DNA from: Caprimulgus europaeus
Lineage: Eukaryota > Chordata > Aves > Caprimulgiformes > Caprimulgidae
DNA: 64,000 nucleotides
Direction: 5' to 3'
NCBI GenBank assembly: GCA_907165065.1
Contig: OU015525.1
Location: 41,398,037 to 41,462,036 of the forward strand
Part shown: piece by piece, positions 13,626-57,489 of the stretch
Position numbering within the stretch: position 1 is the stretch's first letter
How the letters are laid out: each line of letters begins with the position of its first letter
The notes under the pieces: generated by a model
What the model saw: only the letters and a program-made list of their open reading frames with translations
Told to the model about the DNA's origin: nothing
Database searches by the model: none
Made by a program: the position numbers and the translations under genes

Positions 13626-14010
<385 letters not shown>

Positions 14011-22862: not shown

Positions 22863-47245
<24,383 letters not shown>

Positions 47246-47873
47246 CCCCGCGGGAAGCCCCACGCCGCCTCACGGCCCCGACGCCGCCTTCCGCCGGAAC
47301 TGTCGGAGCGCCGGGCCCGCCCCGAGCCCTCCCGGCTGCGGCACAGGGGGCGGCCCGAGCCCGGCCGAGCCGATCGGCCTGGCGGGGGCGTGCGTGGCGA
47401 CGCTGGTGCGGACTGTACCCAGGGGGCGGCAGCCGCAGCGGATGCGGGGGTTCAGGTTTACCACCCGCCGTGCCTGCCAGCGTCCCAGGCCGCCCAGCTG
47501 CAGGGCAGTCGGGCTCTGCAGAGCGGTAGCTGGGGCTGCGTAAGGGCAGCCGGGGCTGTGTGGCTCCTGCTGCTTTCAGTGACTCCCTGCGAGGAATATT
47601 GGTATTTTGATGGTGTTCAGAGCCGGGGGAAGGGGGACGGGAAAGGAGGGGAGGCAAGGATATTGCAACAAAACTCTGCGACAAAAAATATCGCAGCAAA
47701 AATCTGGGAAAACCCGGAGTGGGAAACAGGAGTGGAAAGTCTGAGCAAAGCATCTTGGAGTAGTCAGTGGAGCAGAACTAACGGGAGAGCTTAAAATGAG
47801 GAGAGAACGGGGACAGGGCTGACAGAGGGAGTGGAAATGAAAAGGAAGCCTGGTGAGAGATAGAAAGTGTTTA

Positions 47874-48075
47874 GAATAGAATCACAGAATAGTTTGGGCT
47901 GGAAGGGACCTTAAAGATCACCTAGTTCCAATCCCCCTGCCATGAGCAGGGACACCTTCCACTAGACCAGGTTGCTTAGAGCCTCATCCAACCTGGCCTT
48001 GAACACTTCCAGGGAGGGGCAGCCACAAACTGTTCCAGTGTCTCACCACACTCACAGTGAAGAATTTCTTCCTAG
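47874..48075 (-). mobile_element. CR1 LINE 3' fragment
   Basis: The plus strand reads 'tagaatcacagaatagtttg', 'ggctggaagggacc', 'ttaaagatcacctagttcca' and 'ccactagaccaggttgc', the reverse complement of a CR1 3' end. It is better preserved than the other CR1 pieces here. It lies just beside the CpG island. Confidence 0.92.
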
Positions 48076-50406: not shown

Positions 50407-50724
50407 CAGGAAGGGATATGGAGACCTGAATGCCGTACCTGAGAATTTCTAATCTCTGCAATTTATATATCAGAAGAATTGATTCAGCTGAAGTATCTGG
50501 ATGATTTACTGCAATGTGTGCCCTGGTTCTGGCTGATCCAAATGCCAGTTATAATGCTCTTTGTACCTGAGGTTTTTCAGCTTAGTGTTCTATACCCTTT
50601 CAGCCTTTTGCTTCACATTTACAAAAGAAAGGATACTTAAAGGGACATTATTCCAATGAACCGTGGGACAGAAGGTGGCAAATGGTGACATATCTGTGGA
50701 ACTTGTATGGAAAGTTATGGCATG
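50407..50724 (+). pseudogene. Decayed TMEM68-like coding exon 1
   Basis: This would be the first coding exon of a TMEM68-type acyltransferase (DGAT2 superfamily, ER membrane, neutral lipid synthesis). It follows acceptor 'tctcttttag' and ends at donor CATG|GTAATT. Reading codons from 50461, the frame carries SEELIQLKYLDDL, then a hydrophobic segment with PVIMLFVP and LHIYKRK. These align without gaps to remembered TMEM68 (LEEWFGVEQLEDYL, PLILLILP, LHIYKRK). Right after KRK a one-base loss at about 50632-50634 shifts the frame. The next frame then reads YSNEPWDRRWQMVTYLWNLY and KLWHG, matching YSHNLWDG and VWHG. In the first frame a TAA follows at 50638. Upstream of the SEEL block the frame also contains a TGA. 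Overall similarity is low and there is no clean start codon, so I call it a pseudogene exon. Confidence 0.65.
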
Positions 50725-53700
50725 GTAATTGGGGGTTTTTCTTTTAGCTTGAAAATAGTTGTTAATGAAGAGGAGGAACTGAAGGAAATGTCAGTTCTCC
50801 AGTTCCAGATGTACACAGAAGGACATACAATTGGCTTAAGGTTCAGAGACCCTCTAGTCCTCTAAAAAGGTATTTGCCAAGGTATAAATGACCAGATACT
50901 CAAGTATTGTTCATGACTTGCAGAACTGAAGGTCTCTCAGTATTATTACCTCTTCACTTTTTTGTGAAGACTAGAGTCCACTAAGCAAATGCAAATCATA
51001 AGGTCAAGGCACTTTGACATATGTGAGGTCACTACACGAGGTAGTTGTGACCATCTGTGAGAGAGGAAATTTTTTTCTGTGTCAAAATCCCCTTTGACAC
51101 TTAGATATGAATGACCTGGCACACGAGAAAGTAATTTTATGTGGCCACATTGACTCAGTGAGAATTAAACACTTAAAGTGCCAAAAACCTTGCACCTCTA
51201 GTTCTTGTTCAGCACATAACATTTTTTTTTTTGCTTTTATTTTGAAGTACATTAAGCCATCCCAGCTAGATTTGATGTTTTCTTTAAATGGTTGATGAAC
51301 CAAACAGATATTTAAAAGGACACAAAGCAAACATTGTATCCAGGCATGTTATTTAGATATGTCACTTACTGTATAGTGCATTTTTGATCCTCTAATTGCC
51401 TTCTTAAAGACACCATCAGTCTCAGCCTTCTAGTAGCGGGTAGAATTTCCTAATTATGCTGTAACTGTACTCAGATTGTGTCATTAGACAAACCCGTGGG
51501 AGATGCGGGTTCTTGTAATCATTGTGGTTGTCTTTGCTGTTATGGTTTGTTCAGCACTTGCAATTACAGTAAAATAATAACACTGTTAAACAGTAATTAC
51601 TTGGCTTTCACAGAAGCAAAGCAAAAATGTTTAAGTGAAATTCTATTGGAAAACAATAAATAAATGAATGTTTCAGTCACAGCTCCATGCCCTTTGATTC
51701 CAGGACAGAGTATGAATTTTAATCACTTCTATTTTTATACTGGGCTCTGGGGTTTTTTTGTTGTTTTGTTTTCTTTTGGTTTGGGTTTATTTGTGTGTAT
51801 GTGTGTTTGTGGTTAGACTTTTTTTTTTGGTGGTGGTGGTGTCTTTTCTGTTTCTTTTTCTGCATAAGCCAGGCCAAGTAAGCATATGTGATATTTCACC
51901 AGAGTGGAGAAATTGTCACAGAATAAATAATTGTTTTGTTGCAGCATTGAGGAGTCTCATCGGTTATTGCTGGTACTGCTGCTTTAATTCCTACATAAAG
52001 ACTCTTCTAGCTCATGCTTGGAGGCAAGAGCCAGAAAGACCAGAAAGATAACAGCTAACTTTTATAATGCTTGTGCCATGGATTTGATTATTCCTTGGTT
52101 CCATATGTGTTCACAGCCCAGATGAATACTGTCAGTGCCTGTGGTCTTCAAAGCACCTTTGAATCCTGTGGGAACCATAACTAATTGGAACAGTACCTTT
52201 TTGGTTTTGTGAGTTATCAGACACAGTTAACCCACTGTGTGTGTTTCTCCCCATTGTAGTCTTTGGTTTAACTTTTTGTTTTCCTTTTTTTCTGTGGCAG
52301 TACATGCAGTTAGATTGGATTCAGTTACATAGTCCTAGATAATGGCCCAGACCTTTTATTTTACAAGCAGACTATTCATTTGCAATATTGGAAGTGCTGC
52401 TGATGTAGTTTAAGCCAGAGGACACCACATCCTGAGACCGTGAACACATTGGGGACATCTTAAAAAATTAATTCAAAGATGTGTAGCTTTAATTCTTCTC
52501 TACTGTAAAGTATATTTTTCTTTGAATTGGATTAGTTTTTACAGTGCAGCCTTCTGTGACTTCCTATAAGGGTGTTTTATAGGGCTTTATAGAGCTCTGG
52601 TTTTCAGTGCAGCTCTGAAAATAATAATAACTTTATGTTTCTTTGTTGTGTATTAATTTTTGTTTGCAAGTTTGTAGACCTTTTGGCATTGTGTAAGAGC
52701 CCTAGTCATAGACCATTATGCTAAGTAGTAAGTACATACTAAGTGAAAAGATTGTGTCTGATCTAAAGAGTGGGTAGCAACTTTGTGTAAAGAATGCAAG
52801 ACTTTTGGGAGTTGTATTATGCTTTCAGGCCAAAAACTGATGTCAAAGAAAGACAAATCAAAGGTCATGGCCATAGGCAAGAGCTTATAGAAGCAATTAT
52901 TTTTTCGCCTCAACAACCAGCACTGACCACAATACAAGATCCTACTGGTTTAAGTAACTGCAGGGTAACAAAACTAATCTAATGGATCTAGCTGCCCAAG
53001 GAATAGGGTGGCCAAATTAGGGATGGGCCCTTGCCTGTCTGCAGTAAAAAGAAGCTCAATATTAGTGCTTCCGGAATAAAAAGGAGATCTTCCAGGCAGG
53101 GGTTTTCCTCTGTCAGTGAACTTGTTCCTGCTGAGGTGCTGACCTGCACATGGAAGGATGCTCTCACTTGCAGCTTAATGTCTGAAGCTAAGGCAAGCTG
53201 TAGCAGTAGTAGGCTGGCCACTTTCTGGATCTTCAGTTTTGTGTTAAAACTTTAAATGATTGGTAACTTTATTATTTTCTTTCTGTTAAGTTAATAACAA
53301 TTACAGATGTGTTTCTTTCATGGTACCTTTGGATTATGTAATTTTAAATTTATTTCTGTGTTTCATTATTAGTATTTTCAGTAAAATTCTTGGGGATATG
53401 TTGTTTCTCTGGAACTAATCGTTGGACCATCTTGCTCCCCATATTTGAGGATCCAAAAGCTTTGGCTGCGTTTTTCTTTTCAGTGATTTTTGCTGAATGG
53501 GAAACTTTTATTTCATTCTGCTCTCTCTATATTCTCTTAACCCATCAAGTATTTTTAATTTCCTTACTTACAGCATATGGCTATGAGAAACTATAGACAG
53601 TTTGTTCGTCTGGGTTTATTTCCTGAAATTCAAGGGTTCAGCTGTAAATAACACTGACATATATGAGGAGAGACTACCTCCTGAAATATCATTTACAGGT

Positions 53701-54749
53701 AAGAAATTTCCTTTCTCTATTACAAGCTCATATTAAAGGGTGACCACATGTAGAAAGGAACAGTACAGGAATGCACCAAACCAGCAACTTCCTTTGAGGT
53801 GAAGAGCAATATAATTAGTGGATGAAGGAGTTTGTTAGATTCTAACTACATTTACGCTAGGAAAGAGCTATTGTAACTTGAGTGTGATTCAGAGGTACTT
53901 AAGCTAATTCCTTACTGTTTTTTTTAATAGCATATGACTTTTTTAACACAAGGGAGTGTGGCAGGGAAGGCTTGGTTTAACTCAAATTAGGATCAAAGTG
54001 GTTTACTGATTTATTAATGACACATAATTAGCCAGCAGGCAGTGAACTTCACATTCTGGATCAATATCAGCAGGCTGCCAGATAAACCAGAGTACAAAAC
54101 ACTCGCAAGATGTTAAAGAGCACCTGCAAGTTTCTAAACACTCTGATCTCCACAGTTTCTAATCCCACAGGAGCACGCTCACCTGTGTGCACCTCTCTCT
54201 CACAGGGCGGGGGGTGACAAGCATACCCCCCTCTTTTGGCCATGCATGTTCTCCCGCTGGAGACGAGGCTGCTCTGCCTTTGTGCGTAGCAGTGCAGCTC
54301 CCTGCTCCCTGCTAGTCCTTGCGCTGGCGAGAAGGCACCCCATGAGTTCCTGCACGTGCCCCAAGCTGTGGGTCCTTCTGCGACTGCACCCCGTCCTGCC
54401 AGCTCTGCTCTCCCCATGGGACAGGAGGGTGCTGCAGCAGGCGAGGTGGGGACATGGTGGTAGCGGGGGGCTCCTGGCAGCACCCAAGATGGGGGTCTGA
54501 CTGCTGCCCTGGGCACCTGCCCACTCCCCAGCCTCACCTCATGGTCATCAGTTTCCTTCCACCTTTTATACTTCTCAAGCTGATGCTTTTCTGAAAAGCC
54601 TCTTGGTAATGCCCTGGTTGCTGCTTAATCCAACAGATGCCTATTGTAAACAAACATTGTCATTATTAGTTTCCTCATTTGGTACCCATTTTTGGGGTAA
54701 CTTCCTCTTAGACCAGGCAGTTTTGGGTGTCCTGTCTGCATGGGCTGTT
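50725..54749. other. Non-coding stretch between the two TMEM68-like exons
   Basis: It starts with the putative donor GTAATT. AT-rich; a T- and GTG-rich low-complexity patch lies at about 51748-51870. Open frames at 51758-52051 and 52794-52982 look like chance frames. No conserved exon is recognised. Confidence 0.5.
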
Positions 54750-54930
54750 TACAGAATCAAGGAATTGCTGAGATTGAAAAAGACCTTTAAGATCATCAAG
54801 TACAATCATTAACCTAACACTAAACCATGTCACTCAGCACTCCTGCCTTACTACCAGTTGCTTTCCAGGCCATGCTACCAGGACAGGTCCATCAGGAGGT
54901 TTTGTTACCTCAAAACTCAACTGGTATGTA
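54750..54930 (-). mobile_element. CR1 LINE 3' fragment
   Basis: The plus strand reads 'agaatcaaggaattgctgag', 'attgaaaaagacctttaaga', 'tcatcaagtacaatcattaa' and 'ctaaaccatgtcactcagca', the reverse complement of a CR1 3' end. The left part is clear; the right boundary is uncertain. Confidence 0.82.
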
Positions 54931-54962
54931 ATTACTATTATAACATTTCATATTCTCAACAG

Positions 54963-55102
54963 GTGAGGAGCTTTGTGGGGTGGAAGAAATGCCAGATGGT
55001 CCATCACTCACCCTGGAGCCATCCCTACTGGCTCCTTGTGCATCATTGCTGGTTTATCTGGCCAGAGCACAGTCTTGCCATTTCAAATTTAAAATACCAG
55101 GG
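54963..55102 (+). pseudogene. Decayed TMEM68-like coding exon 2
   Basis: Acceptor 'tattctcaacag' precedes GTGAGGAGCTT. Joined to the previous exon, the split Gly codon is completed and the frame reads WHG then EELCGVEEMPDGPSL, matching remembered TMEM68 WHG-YEVHGMEKIPEDGPAL. A second frame then carries THPGAIP at about 55006-55026, matching the acyltransferase motif YHGAIP with its His kept. The first frame returns with HFKFKIPG at 55081-55102, matching HFVFKIPG. The match thus moves between frames, so several indels have broken the exon. The expected donor after KIPG reads GGGAAAT and has no GT. Confidence 0.7.
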
Positions 55103-57489
55103 AAATATTCTCCTTGTATGAGAAAATGCTAATTAAGAAATATTTTAAATCAAAATATTTTGATGAAACTCACAGATAAAAATGTATCGACAGTAATTCT
55201 GGTAAGAAAAGAGTAATATAGAGAGACAAACCAAAAGGGCAGTTATCTCAGTTATCCCTCTTCATTCATGGTCAAATGTAGCTAACCAAAAGCTAAGGAA
55301 AAAAATAAGCCATGTATGCTATGGTAGATCCCTAGATAAATTTGAATGATATATAGTGGCATAATTATATTTTCTGTTTTGTTTTCTATTTATTTTCTCG
55401 TAATTGCTAGCATTTGATTTGTTGTTGACCATAACTGAGCATGGGACCCAGTAATAATATTTTCACAGAAGTATCTGTTAAAAATTTTGCATCTCTTTCC
55501 CAACTGTTTCTCACAGCCTATCCCAAACTGAGCTTATTTATCACTACAGATATCATGTGACTTCTAAGACGTTAGTCTTGGGAAATCTGTGATGTGTTAT
55601 TGCTCACAATTGCTAATGGGGAATAACTTTCCACAAGGCACTACTATAGCATTATTAACATACAGCATGGCAGTGCCCATTCTCCTGCTTGTGTCTTTCA
55701 TTAACATTACATTTTATCTAAGGTATATCCAAGAAATTTTATTTCCATCCTCTTTCAGTACACAGTGATTTTCCAGTGCTTTTAAAATACTGGTTCCCTG
55801 CTGCAGTTCTGATTGCAGTTTCTATTGACAACTGCCAAAAGCGAAGAGGCACGTAGCAGGGACATGGGAGCAAGGGCTGGGGACTGACTAAATCTGGTTT
55901 GCCAGCAGAAAAACCATGATGTTGGATGATATCCTAAAAATAATGTAAGTTAAATAATGTATTGGTAAATTGATTTTCCTTCTGGGCTCTCCAAACTCTA
56001 AAATAAAGCTCTTTTAGCCATGGCCAGGTGATGACTTAGCAAGGAGACGAGGCAGTGGAAGATGTTACTGTGCTTGCTGGTTTAGCGATGCTCTCCTGCT
56101 GGGAATTACCATCTCCACGGCTCTGCTCAGGAGGGACAGCATTTGTGACCATTAGGTTCATCAGAGACAAAATAAGCTAGGTTAGTCTAATATGAGAATA
56201 AGCAAGATGAACCAAACAGGCTGATTTAGTTTGAAATGGGCCAGGAGCATCCACATGAGCTGTTTGGTCAGCTGGTGTGTGGGAGCACCACTTCTGGCAG
56301 AAAGGCAGCAGCAGCCGCTGGGGCAGAAGGTTTTTCTTCAGGCCCTTGGGATGCAGGAAAGCCTTCAAAAGAAATAATTTGTGTTCAACACAACAAAATA
56401 CTTGCTGTGTATGTATAAAAGTATGAATTATGAAATATCTAGTTTCCCATTCTGCAAGACCTCTTGCCTTCAGTACAAAGCCAGTAAAGGGATAGAGGTG
56501 AAATATGAATTTTTTTTTGATGAAAATCACATTTTTTTCATTCATACATTCAGAGGAAAAAAATTATTATCAATAAATAGATTCTGTTGTGGTCTGATGT
56601 GCATCAGACTTCATGCTATGAAACAGCCTCTAACTGCTTCTTGCCTGCAACTACAAAAGTGTGGAATACTCCTTATATACAGCTGAACACTTCAGAGAGG
56701 TACTCCTCCCTCTTTAGGTTTTCTTTCCTTGTCTTCTGCAACTTCATGTTTGCTGCGTTTCCAATATCTCCTAATTATTTATTCCCCATCTCTTGCTGCT
56801 TTTATGATACACGGAAGGTTTCATGTTGAGATATTGAGAATAAAATTGAGATAAACAGCAGTCCTACTTGAGTTCTGTCTGGGCAAACTTCTTTGGATGA
56901 ATTAAACTATTGTCAAATATACAGTAACATGTCGATAGCTGGGAGTGAAATTCTTCAAAATTAGTTTCTTAGCAGGGTTTTCCCTCTAAATGTTGTCTGT
57001 AGACTTACATTTCCAAATTAGAAAACAAATCCTAAAGCCTTTTAGATTATGTATTTTACCTGTGTATGTCATGAATATAAAGACTGAAGTTCCTGCAACT
57101 ACCAGGTGTTTGTTCTAATTTTTTTCAGTTCTTAACAGGCAAACATTGCAGTTCAGACTGTAAGAGACAAACATGAAAAACCACCAGGAAGCATGCCAAG
57201 AGCTTTATTAGAAAGATTTCACAAACATTAGAAATTTGACTAATATATTTTAATATGTTGAAATATTTTATCTGAAGAAGTCTTCAAATTAATGAATTGC
57301 TAGAGCTCACAGTATTTTAGGGGAGAAGTTTTAATTCTTTAATAGATTTATTTAAATGTATTTGTTTTCAAAGTCAAAGTCACTGTACTTGTAGTTGATT
57401 TTCTTCTTTCTATAAAACATCTGAGATACATTCTCTTTTCCAGATAAGCTCGTGCCTTCCTTGACCTCTAGTTCCCACAGACTTTAAGT
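55103..57489. other. Non-coding stretch, no clear exon
   Basis: AT-rich. A good acceptor at 56711-56717 is followed by a frame reading FSFLVFC, which weakly resembles the next TMEM68 segment, but the likeness fades at once. Confidence 0.45.

What the first reader, a model, noticed from the sequence alone, without database searches (positions are those of the whole stretch)
50407..55102. Decayed TMEM68-like gene head-to-head with TGS1
Two plus-strand segments match the first two coding blocks of TMEM68, including LHIYKRK, the WD...LW...LWHG block, the E..G.E..PDGP.L block, GAIP and FKIPG. The donor and acceptor join in phase 1 within the WHG codon, so it is an exon-intron gene and not a retrocopy. 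Both segments carry frameshifts, the second donor is lost, and identity is low. TMEM68 is well conserved in vertebrates as far as I know, so this is either loss of the gene in this lineage or a dead tandem copy beside a living one.
Basis: partly seen in the sequence, partly recalled or inferred. Interest (0 to 1): 0.8.

Follow-up and report, generated by a model that had tools for sequence, protein, structure and literature searches.

The report
Dead third TMEM68 copy beside TGS1
A bird chromosome carries the broken remains of a third copy of a fat-making enzyme gene next to TGS1; two intact copies stand beside it, and turtles appear to keep the same third copy whole.

Summary
Two plus-strand blocks of a TMEM68-family gene lie at 50,410-50,724 and 54,963-55,101, with splice sites and phase matching living genes. 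It is a pseudogene: no start codon, an in-frame stop, frameshifts, both catalytic residues replaced, a lost donor and three missing exons.

TMEM68 is not lost in this lineage. The same chromosome holds two intact relatives 32 and 56 kb beyond the window, A ("TMEM68-like") and B ("TMEM68"), with a second dead fragment before them. The relic does not look like a recent duplicate of either. It groups with a third sauropsid branch, C, found in turtles and squamates (ultrafast bootstrap 100). As an object it is an ordinary multi-lesion pseudogene; the family history is the moderately interesting part. Whether all birds share the loss could not be tested.

The parts
50410..50724 (+). Relic coding exon 1 (PSI1 e1): acceptor CAG at 50407-50409, GGG where the start codon is expected (50413-50415), in-frame TGA at 50440-50442, a 1-nt frameshift near 50632-50636, donor GTAATT from 50725 intact
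   Evidence: tblastn P0222 E 1.3e-11; HMM 26.6 bits; best of 20 shuffles 5.6 bits; bases and junctions
54963..55101 (+). Relic coding exon 2 (PSI1 e2): acceptor AG intact and in phase, at least two frameshifts, positions of catalytic His and Asp replaced (HPGAIPTG against YHGAIPID), donor lost (GG for GT)
   Evidence: tblastn P0177 E 2.8e-4, P0222 E 5.6e-4; weak alone by HMM, 5.0 bits; junctions
57139..57231 (+).
   Evidence: tblastn P0222 E 1.1e-7; HMM 23.5 bits; junction
55102..57138 (.). 2.0 kb where coding exons 3-5 would lie (11.3 kb in copy A, 12.1 kb in copy B): no trace of them found
   Evidence: family HMM with filters off, E up to 0.5 shown; tblastn
46701..47900 (.). CpG island holding the TGS1 first coding exon; candidate old shared promoter of TGS1 and the relic
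   Evidence: CpG scan; sequence; shared use is inferred
22866..47245 (-). TGS1, facing the relic: coding stretches from about 47.2 kb down to 22.9 kb
   Evidence: tblastn of recalled human TGS1, ten stretches, E 1.8e-4 to 9e-37; first exon read by eye

Best explanation
The locus is the fossil of a third TMEM68-family gene (branch C) in a tandem array that arose in sauropsids after they split from mammals. The array here runs TGS1(-), dead C(+), a second dead fragment(+), living A(+), living B(+). The dead copy lost its start, frame, catalytic pair, a splice donor and its middle exons, and codes for no enzyme. The living copies keep H130 and D136, the pair reported as the active site of human TMEM68 (DIESL), and presumably carry on acyl transfer to make triacylglycerol. 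Shown: lesions, array, intact A and B reading frames, grouping with turtle branch C, and that a search of this genome with a turtle C protein found no intact C. Inferred: A and B are active; redundancy with them allowed the decay; exons 3-5 went by deletion; the loss is old (roughly tens of millions of years); the loss is shared with other birds.
For: Lesions and splice phases. Living copies A and B: six coding exons each, GT-AG junctions, 330 codons, no stop inside the exons; Pfam Acyltransferase 41.8 and 43.1 bits. Branch: PSI1 with turtles P0177 and P0222, SH-aLRT 94.2 and UFBoot 100; whole branch C 99.5/100 (98 of 109 rows); FastTree 0.951 and 0.993 on all 109 rows. Of 61 columns where the C1 turtles differ from both bird A and bird B, the relic shows the C1 residue in 22; the same count is 6 of 56 for A-only and 2 of 46 for B-only columns. 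A genome search with turtle C (P0177) hits only A, B and the relic at E up to 1, 13 of 13 candidates scored. Branch membership of listed entries: birds 35 A, 21 B, 0 C of 56; crocodilians 7 A, 1 B, 0 C of 8; turtles 0 A, 3 B, 11 C of 14.
Against: The relic gives only 157 alignable residues and its branch is long (0.51 against 0.09-0.13 for the turtles), so long-branch error is possible. In the larger 252-row tree support falls to 0.945 for relic plus C1, 0.932 for C and 0.612 for the next node. By simple score the lead of the C turtles is modest: 104 and 100 bits, then 93.6 for a turtle of branch B and for a fish. The rows compared are those that three searches listed (120 each of 881, 540 and 995 hits), so a poorly annotated bird C could be missed. 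The genome searches did not list the relic's own exon 2 or the second dead fragment, so weak remnants elsewhere could be missed too. Exon 6 is still open, which is odd for an old relic, though 30 codons can stay open by chance.
Confidence: 0.87

Rival explanations
1. The relic is a younger tandem duplicate of the living bird A or B gene that died soon after it arose.
For: It lies in tandem with both. With a B-type query block 1 also scores well (turtle B P0096, E 6.6e-13), and a turtle B protein is third by score (93.6 bits).
Against: It groups with turtle branch C with UFBoot 100. C1-only residues match 22 of 61, A-only 6 of 56, B-only 2 of 46. The two best matches are turtle C proteins (104 and 100 bits).
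Confidence: 0.07
2. Unitary loss of TMEM68 itself in this lineage.
For: The relic holds the place next to TGS1 that TMEM68 holds in mammals (recalled from the human map).
Against: Two intact relatives lie on the same chromosome 32 and 56 kb beyond the window; B groups with TMEM68 of birds, turtles, a crocodile and squamates.
Confidence: 0.01
3. A living but divergent gene, mis-assembled or using other exons, or a non-coding RNA started from the TGS1 CpG island that keeps exons 1, 2 and 6.
For: Exon 6 is open, and the e1 acceptor, e1 donor, e2 acceptor and e6 acceptor are all still canonical.
Against: Start codon, frame, catalytic pair, a donor and exons 3-5 are all lost in one gene, in a genome of 1.18 Gb in 121 contigs. 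No transcript data were at hand.
Confidence: 0.05

Closest known systems
TMEM68 / DIESL (PMC10482677, passages seen)
   Same: Exon blocks, LHIYKRK, the WHG phase-1 junction and the GAIP block are those of this family; the living copies A and B carry the His130/Asp136 pair.
   Different: The relic lacks both catalytic residues, exons 3-5, a start codon and an open frame.
Turtle TMEM68-like, branch C1 (P0177 Carettochelys, P0222 Chelydra)
   Same: Closest relatives: 60% identity over 35 residues of block 1, and 55% of 31 (P0177) or 57% of 35 (P0222) over the last exon.
   Different: Predicted as near full-length proteins of 312 and 304 aa in turtles (P0222 lacks a starting Met); broken here.
Bird TMEM68-like (branch A here; a chicken TMEM68-like, LOC421125, is named in PMC12203006, passages seen)
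   Same: Same array (in this genome) and same exon plan.
   Different: Intact, and a different ancient branch. That the chicken LOC421125 is branch A was not tested.

Membership tests
TMEM68/DIESL gene family (by descent) | Sequence similarity over several exons beyond chance | tested here: met
   blocks 1 and 3 far above shuffles, block 2 weaker
TMEM68/DIESL gene family (by descent) | Same exon boundaries and intron phases | tested here: met
   e1/e2 junction and e6 acceptor match copies A and B
TMEM68/DIESL enzyme (by function) | His130/Asp136 catalytic pair and open frame through the acyltransferase domain | tested here: not met
   HPGAIPTG in place of YHGAIPID; frame broken; exons 3-5 not found
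Sauropsid branch C | Groups with turtle/squamate C genes with strong support | tested here: met
   UFBoot 100 on 98 rows; diagnostic residues; lower support (0.93-0.95) on 252 rows
Sauropsid branch C | Same place next to TGS1 in turtles | not testable with these tools
   No turtle DNA at hand
Pseudogene | Several independent lesions, no intact frame | tested here: met
Pseudogene | No protein product or spliced transcript | not testable with these tools
   No RNA-seq or proteomics
Retrocopy | No introns | tested here: not met
   A 4.2-kb intron between exons 1 and 2 with splice sites at the family position, and 2.0 kb before exon 6 with an acceptor at the family position

The most novel reading that the evidence does not exclude
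Sauropsids carried three ancient TMEM68/DIESL genes in a row beside TGS1. Archosaurs (birds and crocodilians) lost the one nearest TGS1, while turtles and squamates kept and multiplied it; the relic here is the fossil of that loss.
Probability: 0.55. Interest if true: 0.45.

Novelty: new member of a known kind. Interest (0 to 1): 0.35.

Why it matters
TMEM68 (DIESL) was reported to make triacylglycerol independently of DGAT1/2 (PMC10482677, passages seen). If sauropsids have several copies with different fates, 'TMEM68' in chicken or lizard data is not one-to-one with the human gene, and comparative work on fat storage or yolk (a chicken TMEM68-like is proposed for egg number in PMC12203006, passages seen) should treat A, B and C apart. 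The relic places, and with other genomes could date, a gene loss; the tandem array around it also gives a likely reason for fused gene models in thrushes and alligator.

Tried and rejected
Rejected: loss of TMEM68 as such (two intact copies). Rejected: retrocopy (intron in phase). Rejected: a weak HMM hit at region coordinate 139,721 (E 0.0044), which is a low-complexity leucine run. Rejected as chance: a tblastn hit at region coordinate 147,701-147,865 (E 0.001 for one of 108 queries; the alignment runs across an exon boundary with an 18-residue gap and the HMM does not list it at E 0.5). The second dead fragment (e2 only, region coordinate 70,819-70,975) could not be placed in a branch: top scores 42.0, 42.0 and 41.2 bits to mixed branches. 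No TMEM68 relative in solved structures at E 1e-5. Rfam: no match at gathering scores. A genome search with Pfam PF01553 gave 8 matches on other contigs (C2, C6, C20, C21, C25) and none on C3; these were not examined one by one, and neither TMEM68-type query hit them at E up to 1. dN/dS was not attempted: only distant paralogs were at hand. The species was not identified; copy A is 95% identical to a Ciconia protein and copy B 93% to a Podargus protein, so it is a bird, probably neoavian. flags stops inside the matches for B exons 4 and 5; these lie in flanking intron bases, not in the exons.

Full report
What was checked. The window is C3:41,398,037-41,462,036 of a 1.18-Gb genome in 121 contigs held as G000. 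With default scoring, turtle TMEM68-like P0222 finds block 1 with E 1.3e-11 and block 2 with E 5.6e-4, and it finds a third block, the last coding exon at 57.14-57.23 kb, with E 1.1e-7 (relaxed settings). A recalled human TMEM68 finds the same places more weakly, block 2 only with relaxed settings. A family HMM over six frames gives 26.6 and 23.5 bits for blocks 1 and 3; 20 shuffled copies of the window gave a best of 5.6 bits. Block 2 alone scores 5.0 bits by HMM, no better than shuffles, so its standing rests on tblastn with turtle C proteins, its place between the other two on the same strand, and its in-phase acceptor.

Anatomy of the relic. Exon 1 begins after CAG at 50,407-50,409, as in the living copies. 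The expected ATG reads GGG, and a TGA follows at 50,440-50,442. Between the KRK and LK blocks five bases stand where the family has six, which shifts the frame, and the exon closes at TGGCATG|GTAATT (50,724/50,725). Exon 2 opens after CAACAG at 54,963 in phase 1, needs at least two frame changes, has HPGAIPTG where the family has YHGAIPID, and ends in CCAG|GG with the donor lost. Exons 3, 4 and 5 were not found; the distance from exon 2 to exon 6 is 2.0 kb, against 11.3 kb in copy A and 12.1 kb in copy B. Exon 6 opens after AACAG at 57,139, is open for 30 codons and stops at TAG 57,229-57,231. The phase-matched intron rules out a retrocopy.

The array. Searching the genome with Apteryx TMEM68 and then with a turtle branch C protein gives 13 matches each, all on C3 between 41.448 and 41.533 Mb. 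These searches did not list the relic's exon 2 or the second fragment, so they are not sensitive to weak remnants. Right of the window come a second dead fragment (exon 2 only, C3:41,468,855-41,469,011, 18.5 bits by HMM), copy A (C3:41,493,814-41,507,330) and copy B (C3:41,517,969-41,533,107), all on the plus strand. A and B have six coding exons, GT-AG splice sites, 330 codons and no stop in the exons, and match the Pfam Acyltransferase family with 41.8 and 43.1 bits. Both keep His130 and Asp136, which PMC10482677 (passages seen) names as the active site of human DIESL. Copy B keeps an Asn-X-Ser sequon at residue 5, the glycosylated site of that paper; copy A has lost it. CpG islands lie at the TGS1 start (46.7-47.9 kb) and about 6-7 kb before the first coding exon of A and of B, so each living copy appears to have its own promoter.

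Which gene died. In a tree of 98 sequences the relic groups with turtle P0177 and P0222 (SH-aLRT 94.2, UFBoot 100) inside a branch C of turtle and squamate genes (99.5/100). The bird and crocodilian genes sit in branches A and B. Mammal TMEM68 falls outside all three sauropsid branches (98.7/100 for the sauropsid group), so the array arose on the sauropsid side. Independent of the tree, the relic has the C1 residue in 22 of 61 columns where C1 is unlike both bird A and bird B, against 6 of 56 and 2 of 46 for A-only and B-only columns. By simple score the turtle C proteins lead (104 and 100 bits) but not by much (next 93.6). Among entries listed by the three searches, birds fall 35 in A, 21 in B and 0 in C of 56; crocodilians 7, 1 and 0 of 8; turtles 0, 3 and 11 of 14. 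Those listings are the best 120 each of 881, 540 and 995 hits, so absence of C in birds is suggestive, not proven. A 252-row FastTree keeps the grouping with lower support (0.945 for relic plus C1, 0.932 for C, 0.612 for the next node).

Mechanism and age. The likeliest course, inferred, is redundancy: with A and B alive, copy C drifted, lost its frame and its middle exons. The relic's branch is 0.51 changes per site against 0.09-0.13 for the turtles from the same node. In branch B this bird's line is about 2.4 times longer than the turtle line (0.263 against 0.109). Scaling by that and by a recalled neutral rate for birds gives an excess worth some tens of millions of years; this is rough and biased low, because only alignable pieces count.

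Literature. Searches for TMEM68 with bird, pseudogene, tandem duplication, TGS1 and bidirectional promoter, DIESL, the term TMEM68-like, and sauropsid/turtle/gene-loss terms (titles and starts of abstracts seen; in some only 20 of 52 and 10 of 7,971 papers were listed) showed no paper on this array or loss. PMC12203006 (passages seen) names a chicken TMEM68-like gene among loci for egg number, with TGS1 in the same region of chromosome 2. PMC11350698 (passages seen) lists an unnamed duck pseudogene on chromosome 2 about 0.33 Mb from a marker in XKR4; whether it is this relic is unknown. PMC11663968 and PMC6182297 (passages seen) do not bear on it. That mammal TMEM68 and TGS1 lie head to head is recalled, not tested here.

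Verdict. TMEM68 is not lost; a third, ancient paralog is dead in this genome. As an object it is ordinary; as a piece of gene-family history it is a modest, testable finding.

Noticed in passing
G000:C3:41468855-41469011 (beyond the window; L022 near its end): Second dead TMEM68-family fragment, exon 2 only, with stops and frame changes (HMM 18.5 bits); branch undecided. A weak CpG-rich stretch lies 1 kb before it (region coordinate 69301-69800).
   Followed up: partly
window 13627-14010: AAAG tetranucleotide array, about 95 copies at 98% match; it makes long spurious open frames on both strands.
   Followed up: no
G000:C3 copy A, residue 5: Copy A has lost the N-terminal Asn5 sequon that copy B and mammal TMEM68 share; turtle C1 protein P0177 lacks it too.
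   Followed up: no
proteins P0006, P0112, P0055: Public gene models in two thrushes and an alligator fuse two neighbouring TMEM68-type genes into one protein of 452-542 aa, likely annotation errors. P0125 and P0136 are also long (640 and 510 aa) but were not inspected.
   Followed up: partly
region coordinates 88501-89800 and 112501-114200 (C3:41486537-41487836 and 41510537-41512236): Each living copy has a CpG island about 6-7 kb before its first coding exon, so the duplicated unit may have included a promoter.
   Followed up: no
alligator and crocodile proteins P0055, P0121, P0122, P0123, P0142, P0153: Branch A appears to have multiplied in crocodilians.
   Followed up: no
duck chromosome 2:40713142 as given in PMC11350698: A lead: the paper's table puts a marker beside an unnamed pseudogene about 0.33 Mb from XKR4 markers; it could be the duck counterpart of this relic or something else.
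   Followed up: no
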